From Acidobacteria bacterium RIFCSPLOWO2_02_FULL_65_29 (lineage in GTDB: Bacteria > Acidobacteriota > Vicinamibacteria > Vicinamibacterales > CAVVIG01): DNA of 55,093 nt. Location: contig MEKT01000154.1 in NCBI GenBank assembly GCA_001767435.1, positions 1,317-56,409 on the forward strand, in the 5' to 3' direction. Numbering within the stretch: position 1 is the first letter of the stretch; every line of letters begins with the position of its first letter. The translations under genes were made by a program, and so were the position numbers. The notes under the pieces were generated by a model. It saw only the letters and a program-made list of their open reading frames with translations, was not told where the DNA came from and did no database searches. Positions 9,071 to 48,193 of the stretch are shown here, piece by piece.

Positions 9071-9130
9071 GGTTGTCTCTCCTCCCGGAGTCGAGGGTAC
9101 AATTCGAGTTGGTCTACGAGCCAGCCATTC

Positions 9131-9208
9131 ATGAGACGTAACTGTTTACCGGTCCGACTAGTAATTGTTTACCGCTCATGGATCGAAGGCGGCAAACAAT
9201 TACCATGA
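9131..9208 (+). other. Possible 25-codon leader ORF created by the element
   Basis: The left copy of the duplicated ATGAGA supplies an ATG that opens a frame right across the element. Its TGA stop (9206-9208) overlaps the ATG of aceE (ATGA at 9205-9208). The arrangement would allow translational coupling. Whether it is translated is unknown; no Shine-Dalgarno sequence is evident in front of 9131. Confidence 0.3.
9137..9204. mobile_element. Miniature hairpin element, 68-bp copy, with 6-bp target duplication
   Basis: Flanked by a direct repeat ATGAGA (9131-9136 and 9205-9210; a seventh base C also matches). Bases 9158-9204 are identical at 45 of 47 positions to the reverse complement of 25306-25352 and form a hairpin from arms TAATTGTTTACCGC and GGCGGCAAACAATTA. 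The left half, GTAACTGTTTACCGG, matches one arm of the second hairpin of the 92-bp copy, with about 23 bp missing. The size, palindromic structure and target duplication are those of a miniature inverted-repeat element; no transposase is encoded. It lies immediately upstream of aceE. Confidence 0.85.
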
Positions 9209-11880
9209 GACATATTGCTCCCAAAGAGGCGACCGAGCTCGACGCCATCGAGACGCGGGAGTGGCTCGACTCGCTCGATTATGTCCTGCAGAGCGGCGGC
9301 GCAGGCAAAGTCGCGCGGCTCCTTCGTGAACTGAGCCTTCACGCGACCAAGAACGGCGTCACGCTGCCCTTCACCGCCAACACTCCGTACATCAACACGA
9401 TTTCCGCCGACAACCAGAATTTGATGCCGGGCAGCCCGGACCTCGAGCGCCGGATCAAGAGCCTCGTGCGTTGGAACGCGGCTGCGATGGTCGTGCGCGC
9501 GAACAAGGCGGAAGACGGTATCGGCGGCCACATCTCCACCTATGCGTCGGCGGCCACGCTCTACGAGGTCGGCTTCAACCATTTCTTTCGCGGGCATGAG
9601 AGCCCCGACGCCGACGTCATCTATTTCCAGGGCCACGCGGCGCCGGGCATCTACGCGCGCGCGTATCTCGAGGGCCGGATCGACGACTCGCACCTCGAGA
9701 ACTTTCGCCGCGAGTTGCAGCCCGGCCGCGGTCTGTCGTCGTATCCGCACCCGTGGCTGATGCCCGACTTCTGGGAGTATCCCACGGTGTCGATGGGCCT
9801 CGGCCCCATCATGGCGATCTACCAGGCGCGCTTCATGCGCTACCTCGAGGATCGCGGGCTGAAAGCATCGTCCAACGCCAAGGTGTGGGCGTTTCTCGGC
9901 GACGGCGAAACCGACGAGCCCGAAGCGCTCGGCGCCATCACGCTGCCGGCCCGCGAACGCCTCGATAACCTGATTTTCGTCATCAACTGCAACCTGCAGC
10001 GGCTCGACGGTCCGGTCCGCGGCAACGGCCAGGTCATCCAGGAGCTCGAGGCAGCGTTCCGCGGCGCCGGCTGGAACGTGATCAAGGTCCTGTGGGGCCG
10101 CGAGTGGGATCCGACGCTCGCCAAGGATCGCGACGGTCTGCTGGTCAAGCGCATGGGCGACATCGTCGACGGTCAGTATCAGAAATACGCTGTCGAGTCC
10201 GGCGCCTATCTCCGAGAGCACTTCTGGGGCGCCGACCCGCGGCTGCTCGAGATGGTCAAGCACCTGTCGGACGACCAGCTGAAGAAGATGTCGCTCGGCG
10301 GCCACGATCCGATCAAGGTGTACAACGCCTACAAGGCCGCGACGGAGCACAAGGGCTCGCCGACGGTCATCCTCGCTCGCACGATCAAGGGGTACGGGCT
10401 CGGCGAGGCCGGCGAAGGCAAGAACATCACGCACCAGCAGAAGAAGATGAACGAAGAGGAGCTGCGGGCGTTCCGCACCCGCTTCGGCATCCCGGTGTCT
10501 GACGCCGAGATCGGCCGCACGCCGTTCTACCGTCCGGCCGAGAACAGTCCCGAATTCAAGTATCTGAAGGAGCGGCGCGCCGCGCTCGGCGGCTACACGC
10601 CCCTTCGCAAGATCCGCAGTGCGCCGCTCGACAAGGTCTCGAGCGAGATCTTCGACGAGTTCTACGCGGACTCCGAGGGCCGGCCAGCGTCGACGACCAT
10701 GGTGTTCGTGCGGATGCTGTCGAAGCTCCTGCGCGACAAGGATCTCGGGCCCCTCGTCGTACCGATCGTCCCAGACGAGGCGCGCACCTTCGGTATGGAG
10801 GCGCTCTTCCGGCAGGTCGGCATCTACTCGCACTCGGGCCAGGCCTACGAGCCGGTCGACAGAGACATGCTCCTGTACTACAAGGAAGCGTCAGACGGCC
10901 AGATCCTCGAGGAAGGCATCAACGAGGCTGGCTCATTGTCGTCGTTCATCGCCGCCGGCACCGCCTACGCGACCTACGGCGTGAACACCATTCCGTTCTT
11001 CATTTTCTACTCGATGTTCGGTTTCCAGCGGATCGGCGACCTCATCTGGGCCGCCGCCGATTCGCGCACGCGCGGGTTCCTGATCGGCGGCACGGCAGGG
11101 CGCACGACGCTCGCCGGCGAAGGCCTGCAGCACCAGGACGGCCACAGCCACCTGCTGGCGTACCCGGTGCCCAACGTCGTGGCCTACGATCCGGCGTTCG
11201 CGTACGAGATCGCGGTCATCATTCAGGACGGCATCCGCAGGATGTATGTCGATCAGGAGAGCGTCTTCTATTACATGACGGTGATGAACGAGCAGTACGC
11301 CATGCCGGCCATGCCCGAGAGGGCGCGCGACGGCATCCTGAAGGGGATCTACCGCTTCCGCGCGACGTCGTTGCCAAACGCCCGCGCGCGGGCGCAGCTG
11401 TTCGGCAGCGGCGCGATTGTGCCAGAAGTCGTCAAGGCCCAGGCGATTCTCGAGGAGAAGTACAACGTCGGCGCCGACGTGTGGAGCGTGACCAGCTACA
11501 GCGAGCTCTACCGCGACGGCCACGCGTGCGAGCGGTGGAACCTGCTGCACCCCGGCGAGCCGCAGCGGGTGCCCTACATCACCTCGTGCCTCGAGGGGGC
11601 CCCGGGCGTCCTCGTGGCGGCGTCCGATTATCTGAAAGCGCTGCCCGATTCGATCGACAAATGGCTGCCGCGGCCGTTGACGACGCTCGGCACCGATGGG
11701 TTCGGCCGCAGCGAGAACCGCGCGAGCCTGCGCGAGTTTTTCGAGGTCGACTATCGCTTCGTGATTCTCGCCACGCTCAGCGCGCTCGCCCGCGAAGGCA
11801 CGATCGACACGTCGGTCGTGCAGCAGGCGATCAAGACGCACGCCATCAATCCGGAAAAGGCGAATCCGGCCGTTTCCTAG
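9205..11880 (+). CDS. aceE: Pyruvate dehydrogenase E1 component, homodimeric type
   Basis: 891 aa from ATG 9205. It decarboxylates pyruvate with thiamine diphosphate and acetylates the lipoyl group of E2. Homology begins at ELDAIETREWLDSLDYVLQ, right after this start; the in-frame ATG 9178 would add nine residues encoded entirely by the inserted element. The ThDP-binding motif is GDGETDEPE...NCN near residue 235-265, and the transketolase-like pyrimidine domain (VPIVPDEARTFGMEALF) is present. Length matches the E. coli-type single-chain E1. E2 follows 114 bp downstream; E3 is not in the window. The upstream region was rewritten by the element at 9137-9204. Confidence 0.95.
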   Translation: MRHIAPKEATELDAIETREWLDSLDYVLQSGGAGKVARLLRELSLHATKNGVTLPFTANTPYINTISADNQNLMPGSPDLERRIKSLVRWNAAAMVVRANKAEDGIGGHISTYASAATLYEVGFNHFFRGHESPDADVIYFQGHAAPGIYARAYLEGRIDDSHLENFRRELQPGRGLSSYPHPWLMPDFWEYPTVSMGLGPIMAIYQARFMRYLEDRGLKASSNAKVWAFLGDGETDEPEALGAITLPARERLDNLIFVINCNLQRLDGPVRGNGQVIQELEAAFRGAGWNVIKVLWGREWDPTLAKDRDGLLVKRMGDIVDGQYQKYAVESGAYLREHFWGADPRLLEMVKHLSDDQLKKMSLGGHDPIKVYNAYKAATEHKGSPTVILARTIKGYGLGEAGEGKNITHQQKKMNEEELRAFRTRFGIPVSDAEIGRTPFYRPAENSPEFKYLKERRAALGGYTPLRKIRSAPLDKVSSEIFDEFYADSEGRPASTTMVFVRMLSKLLRDKDLGPLVVPIVPDEARTFGMEALFRQVGIYSHSGQAYEPVDRDMLLYYKEASDGQILEEGINEAGSLSSFIAAGTAYATYGVNTIPFFIFYSMFGFQRIGDLIWAAADSRTRGFLIGGTAGRTTLAGEGLQHQDGHSHLLAYPVPNVVAYDPAFAYEIAVIIQDGIRRMYVDQESVFYYMTVMNEQYAMPAMPERARDGILKGIYRFRATSLPNARARAQLFGSGAIVPEVVKAQAILEEKYNVGADVWSVTSYSELYRDGHACERWNLLHPGEPQRVPYITSCLEGAPGVLVAASDYLKALPDSIDKWLPRPLTTLGTDGFGRSENRASLREFFEVDYRFVILATLSALAREGTIDTSVVQQAIKTHAINPEKANPAVS

Positions 11881-11994: not shown

Positions 11995-13335
11995 GTGGCT
12001 ATCGATTTCAACCTCCCCGAGCTCGGCGAAGACATCACGGCCGGCGACGTGCTTCGCGTGCTCGTCAAGCCCGGCGACGTGCTCGCGAACGATCAGCCCG
12101 TCCTCGAGCTCGAAACCGACAAGGCCACGATCGAAGTGCCGTCCTCCGTCGCCGGACAGGTGAAAGAGATCAAGGTGAAGGCCGGCGACACCGTGAAGGT
12201 CGGCCAGGCCATCCTGAGCGTCGAGGAGAACGGGTCGAGTCCGCCACCGCCGCCGACTCCGTCGACATCCGCGGCGGCGACGACCGCCGCGGAGCATGGC
12301 GTGCCGGTCAACAAGGTCGTCGACATCAGCCGTGGCGCGCGGCAGTCGGCCGACACCAGTCACGCCGCCTCGGATCTGCCGGCCGCGCCCGCCGCACCCT
12401 CGGTGCGTCGAATGGCGCGCGAGCTCGGCGTCGACATAAGGCAAGTTGCCGGGAGCGGCCCTGACGGCCGCATTTCGATCGAAGACGTCAAGGCACACGC
12501 GAAGCGGATCGTGACAGGCGTCGGGCCAGCAGATGGCGGCGGGGCGCAGGCTCCTGATGTTCCTGCCAGGGCCCTGCCCGATTTTTCGCGCTGGGGAGCG
12601 ATCGATCGCCAGCCGATGCGGGCCGTCCGCCGCAAGACGGCCGAGCACCTGAGCGCCGCGTGGGCCGAGGTGCCCCATGTGACCCAGCACGACCTCGCCG
12701 ACATCACCGCTCTCGAGGAGCTGCGCCGACGCTACTCAAAGCAGGCCGAAGCGGCCGGCGGCAGCCTCACCATTACGGCGATTGCAACGAAGGTCGTGGC
12801 GAGCGCCCTGAAGGTGTTCCCGCAGTTCAATTCGTCGATCGATGTGGTGGCCGGCGAGATCGTCTACAAGAAGTACATCAACATCGGCATTGCCGTGGAC
12901 ACCGATCGAGGGCTCCTCGTGCCGGTCATCCGCGACGCCGACGCCAAGAACGTGATTCAGCTGTCGGTCGAGCTGTCCGGGCTCTCGGAGAAAGCACGAA
13001 CGCACAAGATCTCACTCGAGGACATGCAGGGCGGCTCGTTCAGCATCTCGAACCTTGGAGGCATCGGCGGATCGTTCTTCACGCCCATCGTCAACCTGCC
13101 GGAGGTGGCGATTCTCGGCATCTCGCGCGCGAAGATGGAGCCGGTGTACGCGAAAGATGCCGACCGTGGGCGGGGCCGCGGAAGCGGAGACGGCGCCCGG
13201 CTCGTGCCGCGCTTGATGCTGCCGTTGTCGCTGTCCTACGACCACCGCGTCATCGATGGCGCCGACGGCGCGCGCTTCCTGCGCTGGGTGGTCGAGGCGC
13301 TCGAGCAGCCGTTTCTGCTGGCGTTACAGGGGTAG
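11995..13335 (+). CDS. aceF: Dihydrolipoamide acetyltransferase, pyruvate dehydrogenase E2
   Basis: 446 aa from GTG 11995, chosen because GAGG lies five bases upstream and the protein then begins AIDFNLPELGED; GTG 11980 would add five residues. A single lipoyl domain carries the lipoylated Lys43 in ETDKATIEV, followed by a Pro/Ala/Thr linker, a peripheral subunit-binding domain (PSVRRMARELGVDIRQVAGS), a second linker and the catalytic domain ending in SYDHRVIDGADGARF with the active-site His and Asp. It passes the acetyl group to CoA. Only one lipoyl domain is present, against three in E. coli. Expected partners: AceE upstream and LipA for lipoylation. Confidence 0.95.
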   Translation: MAIDFNLPELGEDITAGDVLRVLVKPGDVLANDQPVLELETDKATIEVPSSVAGQVKEIKVKAGDTVKVGQAILSVEENGSSPPPPPTPSTSAAATTAAEHGVPVNKVVDISRGARQSADTSHAASDLPAAPAAPSVRRMARELGVDIRQVAGSGPDGRISIEDVKAHAKRIVTGVGPADGGGAQAPDVPARALPDFSRWGAIDRQPMRAVRRKTAEHLSAAWAEVPHVTQHDLADITALEELRRRYSKQAEAAGGSLTITAIATKVVASALKVFPQFNSSIDVVAGEIVYKKYINIGIAVDTDRGLLVPVIRDADAKNVIQLSVELSGLSEKARTHKISLEDMQGGSFSISNLGGIGGSFFTPIVNLPEVAILGISRAKMEPVYAKDADRGRGRGSGDGARLVPRLMLPLSLSYDHRVIDGADGARFLRWVVEALEQPFLLALQG

Positions 13336-13560
13336 CCACGAAAACACGAAAACACGAAGAAGACCATCGAGCGAGCCACGAAGGCACGTAGACACGAAGA
13401 AGAAAACGCCTCACCCAGGCATTGTTCTGCGGTCTCTGCGAGTTCCGCCCTTCGACCCCTCGACTGGCTCGGGGTCGTCCCGAGCTCGGTCGAGGGGCGA
13501 CATGCTCAGGGCATCCCCGATCCCTGTCGAGGGATGCGGCAATCGTCGTGAGTAGGAATT
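13336..13560. repeat. Dispersed words (CACGAA..., CCCTCGAC...GTCGAGGG)
   Basis: No gene is visible. 13336-13402 repeats ACACGAAGAAG/CCACGAA words, also found at 23308-23340. 13441-13540 holds CCCTCGAC/GTCGAGGG inverted words (CGACTGGCTCGGGGTCGTCC, CCTGTCGAGGGATGC), the same family as 14984-15062. Confidence 0.75.
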
Positions 13561-14510: not shown

Positions 14511-14586
14511 GGGACGGCAAGGGCAAAGGGCAAGGGCAAGGGCAAAGGGCAGAGGGCAGAGGGGCAAAGGGCAAAGGGCAAAGGGA
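14511..14586. repeat. G-rich word repeat (GGGCAAA/GGGCAG) between ureA and ureB
   Basis: About ten units of GGGCAA, GGGCAAA or GGGCAGA fill the ureA-ureB gap and end two bases before the ureB start codon. The final AAAGGG is the only Shine-Dalgarno-like sequence available for ureB, so the repeat may have been drafted as its ribosome-binding site. The word is shared with 228-290. Confidence 0.9.
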
Positions 14587-14983: not shown

Positions 14984-15062
14984 CCTCGACAAGCTCGGGA
15001 TGCCCTGAGCTCGTCGTCCCTCGACTGTGCTCGGGACGACTCTGAGGTCGTCGAAGGGTCGA
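14984..15062. repeat. CCCTCGAC/GTCGAGGG-type inverted words between ureB and ureC
   Basis: Words such as CCCTCGACAAGCTCGGGAT, CCCTGAGCTCGTCG and GGTCGTCGAAGGG repeat in both orientations, related to 13441-13540 and to a short stretch at 53745-53765. The rest of the spacer (15063-15172) holds CGCAGAG/CTCTGCG words. Together they push ureB and ureC about 210 bp apart. Confidence 0.75.
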
Positions 15063-15172
15063 AGGGTAGAGATCGCGGAGCGCGCAGAGAATTCCATTGG
15101 ATCAGTAACCAACGCGTACCGACTCTGCGTGCTCTGCGTCTGTCGTGGGAATTGTCATCCGCAAGTACATCC

Positions 15173-22435: not shown

Positions 22436-22498
22436 CGCGCGAAGCCACGACGACGATCGCCGCAGAACGCAGAGCTCGCGGAGGCTCTGGGCAAGTCC

Positions 22499-22586
22499 CT
22501 CAAATCCTCAAATCCTCAAATCCTCAAATCCTCAAATCCTCAAATCCTCAAATCCTCAAATCCTCAAATCCTCAAATCCTCAAATT
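22499..22586. repeat. Tandem 8-bp repeat, unit CTCAAATC, about 11 copies
   Basis: Perfect head-to-tail CTCAAATC units run from 22499 up to the stop codon of the TetR gene. Periodic units without unique spacers exclude a CRISPR array. A degenerate relative occurs at 384-425. Length variation between strains is likely. It could affect transcript ends of both convergent genes. Confidence 0.95.
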
Positions 22587-23284: not shown

Positions 23285-23343
23285 GTTCAACTCCGAGCGC
23301 CCACCGCCACGAAAACGCGAAAACACGAAGAAGACCGAACCAC

Positions 23344-24190: not shown

Positions 24191-24568
24191 ATGAACCGGA
24201 AGACATTCTTCGTCGGTCTCGCGATTCTGGCGTTGTTGTGGCCGCTGGCCACCTTCGTGCAGGCCCACATGAAGATCGAGAAGACGCAGCCGGCCGACGG
24301 CACGACGGTTTCGGCCGCACCAACGAGCATCCAGCTGTTTGTCACCGAGAAGCCAGACCTGGCCGTGACCAAGGTTGGGCTGTCGGGACCCTCGGGCAAA
24401 GTGGAGCTTGGGCCGGCCCACGCCATGGGCGAGAAGACCATCATGGCGGCCATCACGGGCACGATGGTGGACGGCAAGTATGCCGTCGACTGGCAGACGG
24501 CCGGCGACGATGGCCACGTGCAGAAAGGCGCGTTCACGTTTACTCTCACGCTCAAGAAAGGGGAATAG
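24191..24568 (+). CDS. copC: CopC-domain periplasmic copper-binding protein
   Basis: 125 aa from ATG 24191, preceded by AAGGAGGAG; an in-frame ATG at 24173 would spoil the signal peptide. Residues 1-25 form a signal peptide ending VQA, and the mature protein would begin with His26 (HMKIEKTQPADGTTV), the N-terminal His used for Cu(II) binding in CopC. A second probable ligand lies in DDGHVQKG, matching the conserved Asp-x-His. It binds copper in the periplasm and is thought to hand it to CopD, encoded two genes downstream; a methyltransferase gene is inserted between them, four bases after this stop. Confidence 0.9.
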   Translation: MNRKTFFVGLAILALLWPLATFVQAHMKIEKTQPADGTTVSAAPTSIQLFVTEKPDLAVTKVGLSGPSGKVELGPAHAMGEKTIMAAITGTMVDGKYAVDWQTAGDDGHVQKGAFTFTLTLKKGE

Positions 24569-24572
24569 GCGG

Positions 24573-25304
24573 ATGATCCCGACGATGCAGCCGCGAAGCG
24601 AGACGTCCGTTGTGGTCAAGAGGAGCGTCGCGCTGCTCTGGGCCATCGCCGGTCTGTGCCTGGCGGGCACGTCGCTGGCGCAGGATCACCCGCCGCAGGT
24701 TGGAGCGGCCGCGCCGGGCCAGCATATGGAGCACCGCTTCGATGATGCCGAGCGCTATGCGAAGTCGTTCGACGACCCGGCGCGGGACGCGTGGCAGATG
24801 CCCGACCGCGTGATCGAGGCGCTGGCCCTCTCGCGCGGCCAGTCGGTGGCCGACATCGGCGCGGGCACGGGATACTTCAGCGTGCGTCTGGCGAAGTCCA
24901 AGGCCGCGCCGATCGTCTACGCGGCCGACGTCGAGCCGTCGATGGTCGACTATCTGGCGAAACGCGCGATGAAGGAAGGCTTGACCAACGTCGTGCCCGT
25001 CCTCGCCGGGGCAAGCGTTGCCAACCTGCCTCGCGCCGTCGATGTCGTGTTGATCGTCGACACGTACCACCATATCGCGAACCGGCCGGCGTATTTCCGC
25101 GAGCTGCGAAAATCGATGAAACCGGGCGCCCGCCTCGCCATCATCGACTTCAAGAAGGACGCCCCCGAGGGACCTCCAGTGGAGTTCCGCTTCACCGCGG
25201 AGGAGATCGCGGCCGAGCTCGGATCAGCCGGATTCCGGCTGGTTACCCAGCACGTGTTCCTGCCGCGTCAGATGTTCCTCGTCTTCGAACCCGGCACTTT
25301 CTGA
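24573..25304 (+). CDS. Class I SAM-dependent methyltransferase with an N-terminal signal-like segment
   Basis: 243 aa from ATG 24573, four bases after the copC stop. Residues 17-36 (RSVALLWAIAGLCLAGTSLA) look like a Sec signal peptide cleaved before QDHPP. The rest is a complete Rossmann methyltransferase: motif I VADIGAGTGYFSVRLA, acidic ADVEPSM, DVVLIVDTYHHI and PGARLAIIDF. A methyltransferase outside the cytoplasm would lack a known supply of SAM, so either the segment is an uncleaved anchor with the domain inside, or the protein has another role. Its place between copC and copD suggests a link to copper handling, but no reaction can be named. Confidence 0.85.
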   Translation: MIPTMQPRSETSVVVKRSVALLWAIAGLCLAGTSLAQDHPPQVGAAAPGQHMEHRFDDAERYAKSFDDPARDAWQMPDRVIEALALSRGQSVADIGAGTGYFSVRLAKSKAAPIVYAADVEPSMVDYLAKRAMKEGLTNVVPVLAGASVANLPRAVDVVLIVDTYHHIANRPAYFRELRKSMKPGARLAIIDFKKDAPEGPPVEFRFTAEEIAAELGSAGFRLVTQHVFLPRQMFLVFEPGTF

Positions 25305-25305
25305 T

Positions 25306-25397
25306 GGTAATTGTCTACCGCCTTCGATCCATGAGCGGTAAACAATTACTAGTAACTGTTGACCGGTACGCGCCGGTCGACCCGGTCAACAGTTACC
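25306..25397. mobile_element. Miniature hairpin element, 92-bp copy, with 6-bp target duplication
   Basis: Flanked by perfect TCTGAT direct repeats (25300-25305, 25398-25403). It consists of two hairpins: GGTAATTGTCTACCGC with GCGGTAAACAATTAC, then GTAACTGTTGACCGG with CCGGTCAACAGTTAC. It is in the opposite orientation to the copy at 9137-9204. Removing the element and one TCTGAT restores a junction in which the methyltransferase stop TGA is followed by TGTG and then the ATG of copD. Confidence 0.9.
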
Positions 25398-25406
25398 TCT
25401 GATGTG

Positions 25407-26258
25407 ATGGAGCTCGCGCCGGAAGCCGCGGCAAAAGCGGTGGTCTACGCCGCAGTGCTGCTGGCGATCGGCGCGAGCGCCACACGCTGGCTCGTGGCGC
25501 CGCGGGCGCTCGCCGGCGAGGATGCGCGACGGCTCGAGCCCGCGCTGGCCGCGCTCGCCGGTTACGCGGCAGCCGCGATGCTGGCTGCGCAGTCGGTGCG
25601 CGCGGTGACGCACACGGCGGCGGCGTTCGGGTGGCGCGACGCGCTGGCGTGGGATCAACTTTCGGTCATCGCCTTCCAAAGCCGGTGGGGAGGTGGGTGG
25701 CGCCTGCAGGTCGGGGCAGCCGCCTTTTTGCTTGTTGCCACGAGTGTCGTCCACCTTCATCGATCCACCGGCTGGGTGCTGAGTGCAACCGGCGCGGTGA
25801 CGTGCGCCGCGTCGATGCCCCTACTCGGGCACGCGGCGTCCAATCCCCTCGGCCCGGTGCTGCACACGGCGCACGTCCTGGGCGCCGGTCTCTGGCTCGG
25901 GACCCTCGGGTGCGTTCTGCTGATTCGCCGCGAGGCCGCAGGCGAGTTGCTGCGGCACTTCGCGCCGATTGCGCTCACGGGGGCGAGCATCGCGGCCGCG
26001 GCCGGAGCGATTTCGGCCGTGCAGTACCTCGGCTCGCCCGCCAACCTGTGGGCGACGGCGTACGGCCGCGCGCTGGGCGTGAAACTCGCCATCGTCGCGG
26101 CCGTCCTCTGCTGCGGATATCTCAACTGGCGCCGCTGGTCCGCCTCGCCGACCGAGCCGACGGCGGAGGGGTCGGTGCGCCTGCCGATACTCGAAGCGCT
26201 TCTGGGTGTGGCCATCGTCCTGGCGACGTCGGTGCTGACCGAGCTCGCACAGCCCTAG
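25407..26258 (+). CDS. copD: CopD-family copper resistance membrane protein
   Basis: 283 aa from ATG 25407. About eight hydrophobic segments are visible, with intramembrane His in HTAHVLGAGLWLGTLG and MPLLGHAASN, as in the CopD domain, and an ending LATSVLTELAQP that resembles the family's conserved GxxLxxLxP end. It probably imports copper across the inner membrane with CopC. No Shine-Dalgarno sequence exists before the ATG; before the insertion at 25306 the gene would have started four bases after the methyltransferase stop, so it was probably translated by coupling. Confidence 0.85.
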   Translation: MELAPEAAAKAVVYAAVLLAIGASATRWLVAPRALAGEDARRLEPALAALAGYAAAAMLAAQSVRAVTHTAAAFGWRDALAWDQLSVIAFQSRWGGGWRLQVGAAAFLLVATSVVHLHRSTGWVLSATGAVTCAASMPLLGHAASNPLGPVLHTAHVLGAGLWLGTLGCVLLIRREAAGELLRHFAPIALTGASIAAAAGAISAVQYLGSPANLWATAYGRALGVKLAIVAAVLCCGYLNWRRWSASPTEPTAEGSVRLPILEALLGVAIVLATSVLTELAQP

Positions 26259-34553: not shown

Positions 34554-34745
34554 GGGCGCTCCTTTACGGATCGGATACGCAAGGGCAATGCCGACACGAC
34601 CGGCGGGCCAGGTCGGGGTACAGGGCCGCTGAGGCGCGATCGGCCGGAATTTCAACGGTCCTCGGCCATTTTGCGCTTGCGGCCGCCTCCGCCCTTACTC
34701 GGGCCGTAACGCGTTACCGTCCTCGTAACGCTAGTCGCGAGTCGT

Positions 34746-34806
34746 GAGTCGCTAGTCGATAGTCATTAGTCAGGAGCTGGAACTAACGACTATCGACTAT
34801 CGACTC
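34746..34806. repeat. Inverted word repeat (AGTCGATAGTC words)
   Basis: Arms 34746-34770 and 34782-34806 are complementary at 23 of 25 positions and consist of repeated AGTCGATAGTC words. It lies seven bases beyond the stop of the NtrC-type gene and can form a strong hairpin. The upstream 34690-34745 holds GTAACG words and the likely promoter of the barrel gene. Confidence 0.88.
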
Positions 34807-34813
34807 GCGCGCG

Positions 34814-40978: not shown

Positions 40979-41085
40979 GAATCGGGTAATTGGATAATCG
41001 GGTAATCGAGCAATTGAGTAAGAAATGGACGGGGATTGACGGTCAATATTTCTATCAATGACCCGATTACTCAATTACCCGATTC
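40979..41085. repeat. Inverted word repeat (TAATCGGGTAATTG words)
   Basis: Arms 40979-41003 and 41061-41085 are complementary at 23 of 25 positions, built from GAATCGGGTAATTG/TAATCGGGT words; the outermost 14 bp pair perfectly. It fills the nuoB-nuoI spacer, starting at the base after the nuoB stop. Confidence 0.9.
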
Positions 41086-48097: not shown

Positions 48098-48193
48098 CAG
48101 TTGACAGTTCACAGTTAACAGTAAAGCCCGCTGATAGCCGATAGCCGTCGCGGTTTCGTGTTTTCCGAACTGTTAACTGTGAACTGTCAACTG
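48098..48193. repeat. Perfect 25-bp inverted word repeat (ACAGTTCACAGTTAACAG words)
   Basis: Arms 48098-48122 and 48169-48193 are perfectly complementary over 25 bp with a 46-bp loop. The words GACAGTTCACAGTT also extend left to 48077. The structure lies between the anti-sigma gene and the thioredoxin-like gene and could end the sigma operon transcript or extrude as a cruciform. Confidence 0.93.

What the first reader, a model, noticed from the sequence alone, without database searches (positions are those of the whole stretch)
25300..25403. Second copy of the same element, inverted, splits the methyltransferase-copD junction with a perfect 6-bp target duplication
The 92-bp copy is flanked by TCTGAT on both sides. 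The reconstructed empty site gives a methyltransferase stop codon followed by four bases and then the copD ATG, a normal coupled operon junction. Two independent insertions with duplications of the same length, both right before start codons, indicate a mobile miniature element with a preference for (or tolerance at) gene starts. I do not recognise it as a named family such as ERIC, RUP or Correia.
Basis: partly seen in the sequence, partly recalled or inferred. Interest (0 to 1): 0.75.

Follow-up and report, generated by a model that had tools for sequence, protein, structure and literature searches.

The report
Miniature IS66-type hopping DNA hairpin pair
The 90-bp insert is a gene-less "hitchhiker" mobile element, made of two DNA hairpins, that was almost certainly moved around this Acidobacteria genome by the transposase of an IS66-type (ISBst12 group) insertion sequence; it is a new family of a familiar kind rather than a new kind of system.

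Summary
With the correct ends (GTAA...TTAC) the element is 90 bp (25307-25396). Its target duplication is 8 bp (TTCTGATG / CTCTGATG, 7 of 8), not 6. The other window copy (9138-9203) has a perfect 8-bp duplication, CATGAGAC.

The home genome holds 11 copies. Four more two-ended copies there have perfect duplications of 8-9 bp, one more being a three-hairpin copy. Single-hairpin copies have none. Relatives of the same order carry two- and three-hairpin versions (HB-HC-HA, 161-169 bp).

The source was identified. Single-gene IS66 (ISBst12-group) transposons in the same order make 8-bp duplications and have the same tips. One has a left tip, GTAACTGTTTACCGGGT, identical over 17 bases to the outer end of hairpin HB, and a right tip with CCGC like HA. 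A motif scan of 162 genomes found that end only in these miniature elements, at IS66 tips, and in two unassigned hits. A relative has the methyltransferase-copD junction without the element.

It is therefore a MITE (miniature non-autonomous element), most likely mobilised in trans by an IS66/ISBst12 transposase. No intact partner was found in this genome. Preference for gene starts is not shown.

The parts
25307..25396 (-). MITE copy 2 (90 bp), HB-HA orientation on the minus strand
25307..25349 (-). hairpin HA (43 bp): 15-bp stem GTAATTGTTTACCGC, right-end module of the element
25352..25396 (-). hairpin HB (45 bp): stem GTAACTGTTGACCGG, left-end module; its tip matches IS66 tips
25299..25306 (.). 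target duplication TTCTGATG, left copy (contains the methyltransferase stop TGA 25302-25304)
25397..25404 (.). target duplication CTCTGATG, right copy (7 of 8 matching)
24375..25304 (+). upstream methyltransferase ORF (true start probably well inside this ORF)
25407..26258 (+). downstream copD-family gene
9138..9203 (+). MITE copy 1 (66 bp): HB reduced to its outer 21 bp, TA, complete HA (9161-9203)
9130..9137 (.). target duplication CATGAGAC, left copy
9204..9211 (.). target duplication CATGAGAC, right copy; contains the start codon (9205) of the pyruvate dehydrogenase E1 (aceE-like) gene

Best explanation
A MITE: a gene-less transposable element whose two ends (HB = left, HA = right, each folded back into a palindrome) are recognised by the DDE transposase of a single-ORF IS66-family insertion sequence (ISBst12 group). 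The transposase is supplied in trans. Integration makes an 8-bp staggered target duplication. The ancestral unit was probably three hairpins, HB-HC-HA, of about 165 bp. Loss of HC gave the 90-bp form in this genome, and later deletions gave truncated and single-hairpin remnants. Shown: repeat family, ends, 8-bp duplications, empty site in a relative, transposons in relatives with the same tips and duplication length. Inferred: that such a transposase moved it, and that the partner is now lost from, or missing in, this genome assembly.
For: Eleven copies in the home genome. Of 11 two-ended copies examined in three genomes, 6 have perfect 8-bp duplications, 1 has 9 bp, 2 have 7 of 8, 1 is an offset near-match and 1 has none; a chance 8/8 is about 3e-5. 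The 5 single-hairpin copies have none, so the mobile unit seems to need both ends. IS66 transposons in the order were found by a search for terminal repeats plus duplications: L123 8/8, L131 8/8, L178 8/8, L125 7/8, and L127 8/8 in the wider phylum. L173 (G070), 1572 bp, has left tip GTAACTGTTTACCGGGT, 17 of 17 with the MITE's HB end, right tip GTATCTGATTACCGCAT and a 7/8 duplication. The tip asymmetry CCGGGT / CCGC matches HB / HA in L173 and L127. Over 162 genomes the motif gave 16 hits against 1 in the control; outside the three MITE-bearing genomes 3 of 5 hits are IS66 tips. The transposase scores above the NCBIfam IS66 cut-off. Published ISBst12-group ISDge4 has tip GTAACTGCTCAGCA and an 8-bp repeat (PMC12898284). 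Relative G004 has the methyltransferase-copD junction with 11 bp and no element.
Against: No intact partner IS in the home genome: its single IS66 hit (C124) lacks such ends, though the genome is a 239-contig draft. The best pair of MITE copies is 92% identical, so recent activity is not shown. The IS66 tips seen here are not palindromic, and the origin of the palindromes is unexplained. The best-matching IS (L173) has a frameshift in its transposase gene. One two-ended copy (L061) lacks a duplication.
Confidence: 0.88

Rival explanations
1. A REP/BIME-like palindromic repeat moved by a RAYT (Y1, IS200/IS605-like) transposase.
For: Short intergenic palindromes, singles and pairs.
Against: RAYT/IS200-type insertion does not duplicate its target (own knowledge), whereas 8-bp duplications are consistent here. 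REPs carry a GTAG or CGTC tag (PMC3733652), and these palindromes begin GTAA. The tips match IS66.
Confidence: 0.02
2. A MITE of another DDE family that also makes 8-bp duplications.
For: Several IS families make 8-bp duplications (own knowledge); the exact partner was not found in this genome.
Against: A 17/17 tip match and matching left/right asymmetry to IS66 elements of the same order. In 20,000 random trials, the best of 21 random tips never exceeded 15 of 19 matches, against 18 of 19 observed.
Confidence: 0.06
3. Two independent tiny elements (HA and HB), each mobile alone, that happen to sit side by side.
For: Each hairpin has GTAA...TTAC at both ends, and single hairpins exist.
Against: Singles have no clean duplications, while two-ended units nearly always do. 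The spacer TA and the order HB-HA are constant in the 90-bp form, and several relatives carry HB-HC-HA.
Confidence: 0.06
4. A structured regulatory RNA or attenuator conserved upstream of genes rather than a mobile element.
For: Strong hairpins near starts of aceE-like, copD, rplU-like and aroB-like genes; three compensatory stem changes.
Against: Unrelated neighbouring genes, both orientations, target duplications, no Rfam match to a bacterial RNA, weak covariation (49 of 500 shuffles reach the HA percentage paired; HB 5 of 500).
Confidence: 0.03

Closest known systems
IS66 family, ISBst12 group (e.g. ISDge4 of Deinococcus geothermalis, PMC12898284)
   Same: Tips starting GTAA; 8-bp target repeat; L173, L121 and L127 of Acidobacteriota share the MITE's tip sequence.
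   Different: The MITE has no transposase, is 66-169 bp, and its ends are palindromes.
Bacterial MITEs in general (e.g. RUP, Correia/NEMIS, ERIC, Nezha, MITEPsy1)
   Same: Short, gene-less, terminal inverted repeats, target duplications, intergenic, derived from an IS.
   Different: Duplication is 8 bp rather than the TA of RUP, Correia and ERIC (own knowledge); unrelated ends; two or three hairpin modules.
REP/REPIN sequences moved by RAYTs
   Same: Intergenic palindromes, single or paired.
   Different: REPs have the GTAG/CGTC tag; the present element has 8-bp duplications and IS66-like tips.
Internally deleted IS66 copy L131 (G027, 511 bp)
   Same: Non-autonomous, ISBst12-type tips, perfect 8-bp duplication GTTGGTAG.
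   Different: Keeps part of the transposase gene; no palindromic ends; may show how such derivatives start.

Membership tests
[quoted passage not shown]
   66-169 bp, 11 copies in the home genome
[quoted passage not shown]
   GTAAYTGTTTACCG at both ends
[quoted passage not shown]
   8 bp (7-9) in 10 of 11 two-ended copies, counting near-matches
[quoted passage not shown]
   In relatives (L173 17/17 tip, frameshifted; L121; L127), not in the home assembly
IS66 family, ISBst12 group (as source) | Tips beginning GTAA and 8-bp duplication | tested here: met
   family features in PMC12898284 and PMC3281130
IS66 family, ISBst12 group (as source) | Single IS66 transposase ORF in the partner | tested here: met
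   NF033517 above cut-off for L121 and L125; not carried by the MITE itself
IS66 family, ISBst12 group (as source) | Transposase acts on the MITE ends | not testable with these tools
   needs an experiment
REP / REPIN | GTAG or CGTC tag and no target duplication | tested here: not met
   GTAA ends, 8-bp duplications; tag from PMC3733652, lack of duplication from own knowledge
ERIC / RUP / Correia | TA target duplication (own knowledge) | tested here: not met
   8-bp duplications

The most novel reading that the evidence does not exclude
The palindromic form of each end is functional: the transposase (or a host process) acts on folded hairpin ends, or keeps both arms of each palindrome identical, which would be a departure from ordinary duplex terminal repeats of IS66 elements. 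Alternatively, copies inserted at start codons (aceE-like, copD) have been co-opted as translational leaders.
Probability: 0.12. Interest if true: 0.5.

Novelty: new member of a known kind. Interest (0 to 1): 0.33.

Why it matters
It names the source of an otherwise anonymous repeat: MITEs tied to ISBst12-type IS66 elements were not found in the papers searched, and IS66 transposition is poorly studied. The family gives natural substrates (two-ended, truncated, three-module) for learning which part of an IS66 end the transposase needs. It also gives annotators a sequence signature for Acidobacteriota genomes and explains displaced start regions such as those of the aceE-like and copD genes here.

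Tried and rejected
A 6-bp duplication with GG...CC ends: rejected, because other copies give 8 bp with GTAA...TTAC ends. A nested insertion with CTAG duplication in the C214 copy (my first reading): rejected, because HC is a regular third module in G047 and G146 and can form a terminal end (L065). The home genome's IS66 hit on C124 as partner: no matching ends. Protein search for the partner in an even sample of the phylum gave only 5 genomes, with one complete element of use (L127). Exact hairpin scan of public genomes: only the same groundwater Acidobacteria MAG as G047; none in viral contigs. Plasmids and phages: none. Rfam: only sub-threshold microRNA families.

Full report
Observation. 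The insert lies between a methyltransferase ORF (stop 25302-25304) and a copD-family gene (ATG 25407). TCTGAT flanks it as described. A 54-nt stretch is 94% complementary to 9157-9210, so the two window copies are inverted relative to each other. The full palindromic pattern matches only here in the window and never in shuffles.

Anatomy. Lining up all copies shows the true ends, GTAA...TTAC. The unit is HB (about 45 bp, stem GTAACTGTTTACCGG), a TA spacer, and HA (about 43 bp, stem GTAATTGTTTACCGC). In the window: HA 25307-25349, TA, HB 25352-25396, so the element reads HB-HA on the minus strand. With these ends the flanking duplications become 8 bp: L002 CGTTGAAA, L003 GGGTTTGC, L005 CAATCCGA, L006 (window copy 1) CATGAGAC, and the C214 copy (L013) GCCGCATC, all perfect; L004 9 bp; the finding's own copy 7 of 8. 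Two relatives add CTCTCAGC (8/8, L065 of G047) and CATAGCGG/CATAGTGG (7/8, L087 of G146). Five single-hairpin copies have no clean duplication (one matches 5 of 8), so they look like deletion remnants.

Distribution. The home genome has 11 copies. Among 162 genomes of the order, a covariance model of HA finds clear copies in G000, G047 and G146, decayed copies in G144 and G147, and a distinct 64-bp hairpin with a similar tip in G010. G047 corresponds to an Acidobacteria groundwater MAG, which places the home genome in that phylum (inference from shared order). G146 mostly carries a three-module form HB-HC-HA; the C214 copy of the home genome and L061 of G047 have it too. The simplest history is a three-module ancestor that lost HC to give the 90-bp form. 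Nothing was found in plasmids, phages or viral contigs.

Source. GTAA tips with 8-bp duplications point to the IS66 family. IS66 transposons of the order and phylum were searched for terminal repeats plus duplications. The single-ORF (ISBst12-type) elements share a tip of the form GTMNYYGNTTASCGGGT: L123/L171 duplication TTCCGGCG, L131 GTTGGTAG, L178 CTACCGGC, L127 CACGAAAC, all perfect; L125 and L173 7 of 8. L121 has GTAATTGATTACCGGGTC at both ends, without a clean duplication. L173 (G070, same order, 1572 bp) has a left tip identical to HB over 17 bases, and a right tip ending CCGCAT where HA has CCGCTCAT; L127 shows the same CCGGGT/CCGCCT asymmetry. A pattern scan of all 162 genomes for this end (one mismatch allowed) gave 16 hits against 1 for the reversed control. 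Eleven lie in the three MITE-bearing genomes, three are the tips of L121 and L173, one (G143) starts GGAA and lies beside no IS66 gene, and one (G153) is at a contig end and could not be judged. Proteins of L121 and L125 pass the NCBIfam IS66 cut-off. Published ISDge4 of the ISBst12 group has tip GTAACTGCTCAGCA and an 8-bp repeat (PMC12898284), and IS66 elements of Paracoccus have 8-bp repeats (PMC3281130).

Empty site. In G004, a relative of the same family, the methyltransferase (66% identical) and CopD (40%) are separated by 11 bp with no element. This supports insertion into a pre-existing junction, although it is one relative at moderate identity.

Mechanism. Shown: a repeat family with defined ends, 8-bp duplications, and IS66 transposons with the same ends in relatives. 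Inferred: movement in trans by an ISBst12-type transposase. Not found: an intact partner in the home draft genome, whose only IS66 hit is unrelated in its ends. The best pair of copies is 92% identical, so the burst was probably not recent.

The palindromes. IS66 tips in the partners are not palindromic, whereas each MITE end is. Stems are well kept (98% and 94% of cells paired) with three compensatory changes, but covariation against shuffles is weak for HA (49/500) and moderate for HB (5/500), so a selected RNA structure is not established.

Gene starts. All 11 genomic copies appear to lie between genes, and about half of 14 inspected copies sit within about 25 bp upstream of a start codon, judged by eye and a simple ORF model. 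Without a neutral model this does not show targeting.

Verdict.

Noticed in passing
9131-9208: In window copy 1 the insertion duplicated the start codon of the aceE-like gene. The old start now opens a 25-codon ORF through the element whose TGA overlaps the present ATG (ATGA), so translational coupling is possible.
   Followed up: partly
25304-25402: In window copy 2 an ATG overlapping the methyltransferase stop opens a 32-codon ORF through the element ending 4 nt before the copD ATG, analogous to copy 1; may be coincidence.
   Followed up: partly
L131:1473-1983: A 511-bp internally deleted IS66/ISBst12-type element with a perfect 8-bp duplication in G027, a likely intermediate on the way to MITEs.
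   Followed up: no
L144:1501-1564: G010 carries a separate 64-bp hairpin with tip GTATTTGTTTACCGCCCT, possibly another IS66-type MITE family.
   Followed up: no
48098-48193: A 25-bp perfect inverted repeat CAGTTGACAGTTCACAGTTAACAGT around a 46-bp loop; similar long hairpins of short repeated words at 34743-34809 and 40979-41085.
   Followed up: no
22498-22585: A tandem array of about eleven copies of the 8-bp unit CCTCAAAT.
   Followed up: no
13335-13405 and 23306-23336: Repeated GCCACGAAAACACGAAGAAGACC words; also GGGCAGA/GGGCAAA arrays at 228-287 and 14539-14585, probably another intergenic repeat class.
   Followed up: no
13426-13517 and 14997-15088: A 92-nt inverted pair, 80% complementary, itself rich in internal palindromes; possible second intergenic repeat family.
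   Followed up: no
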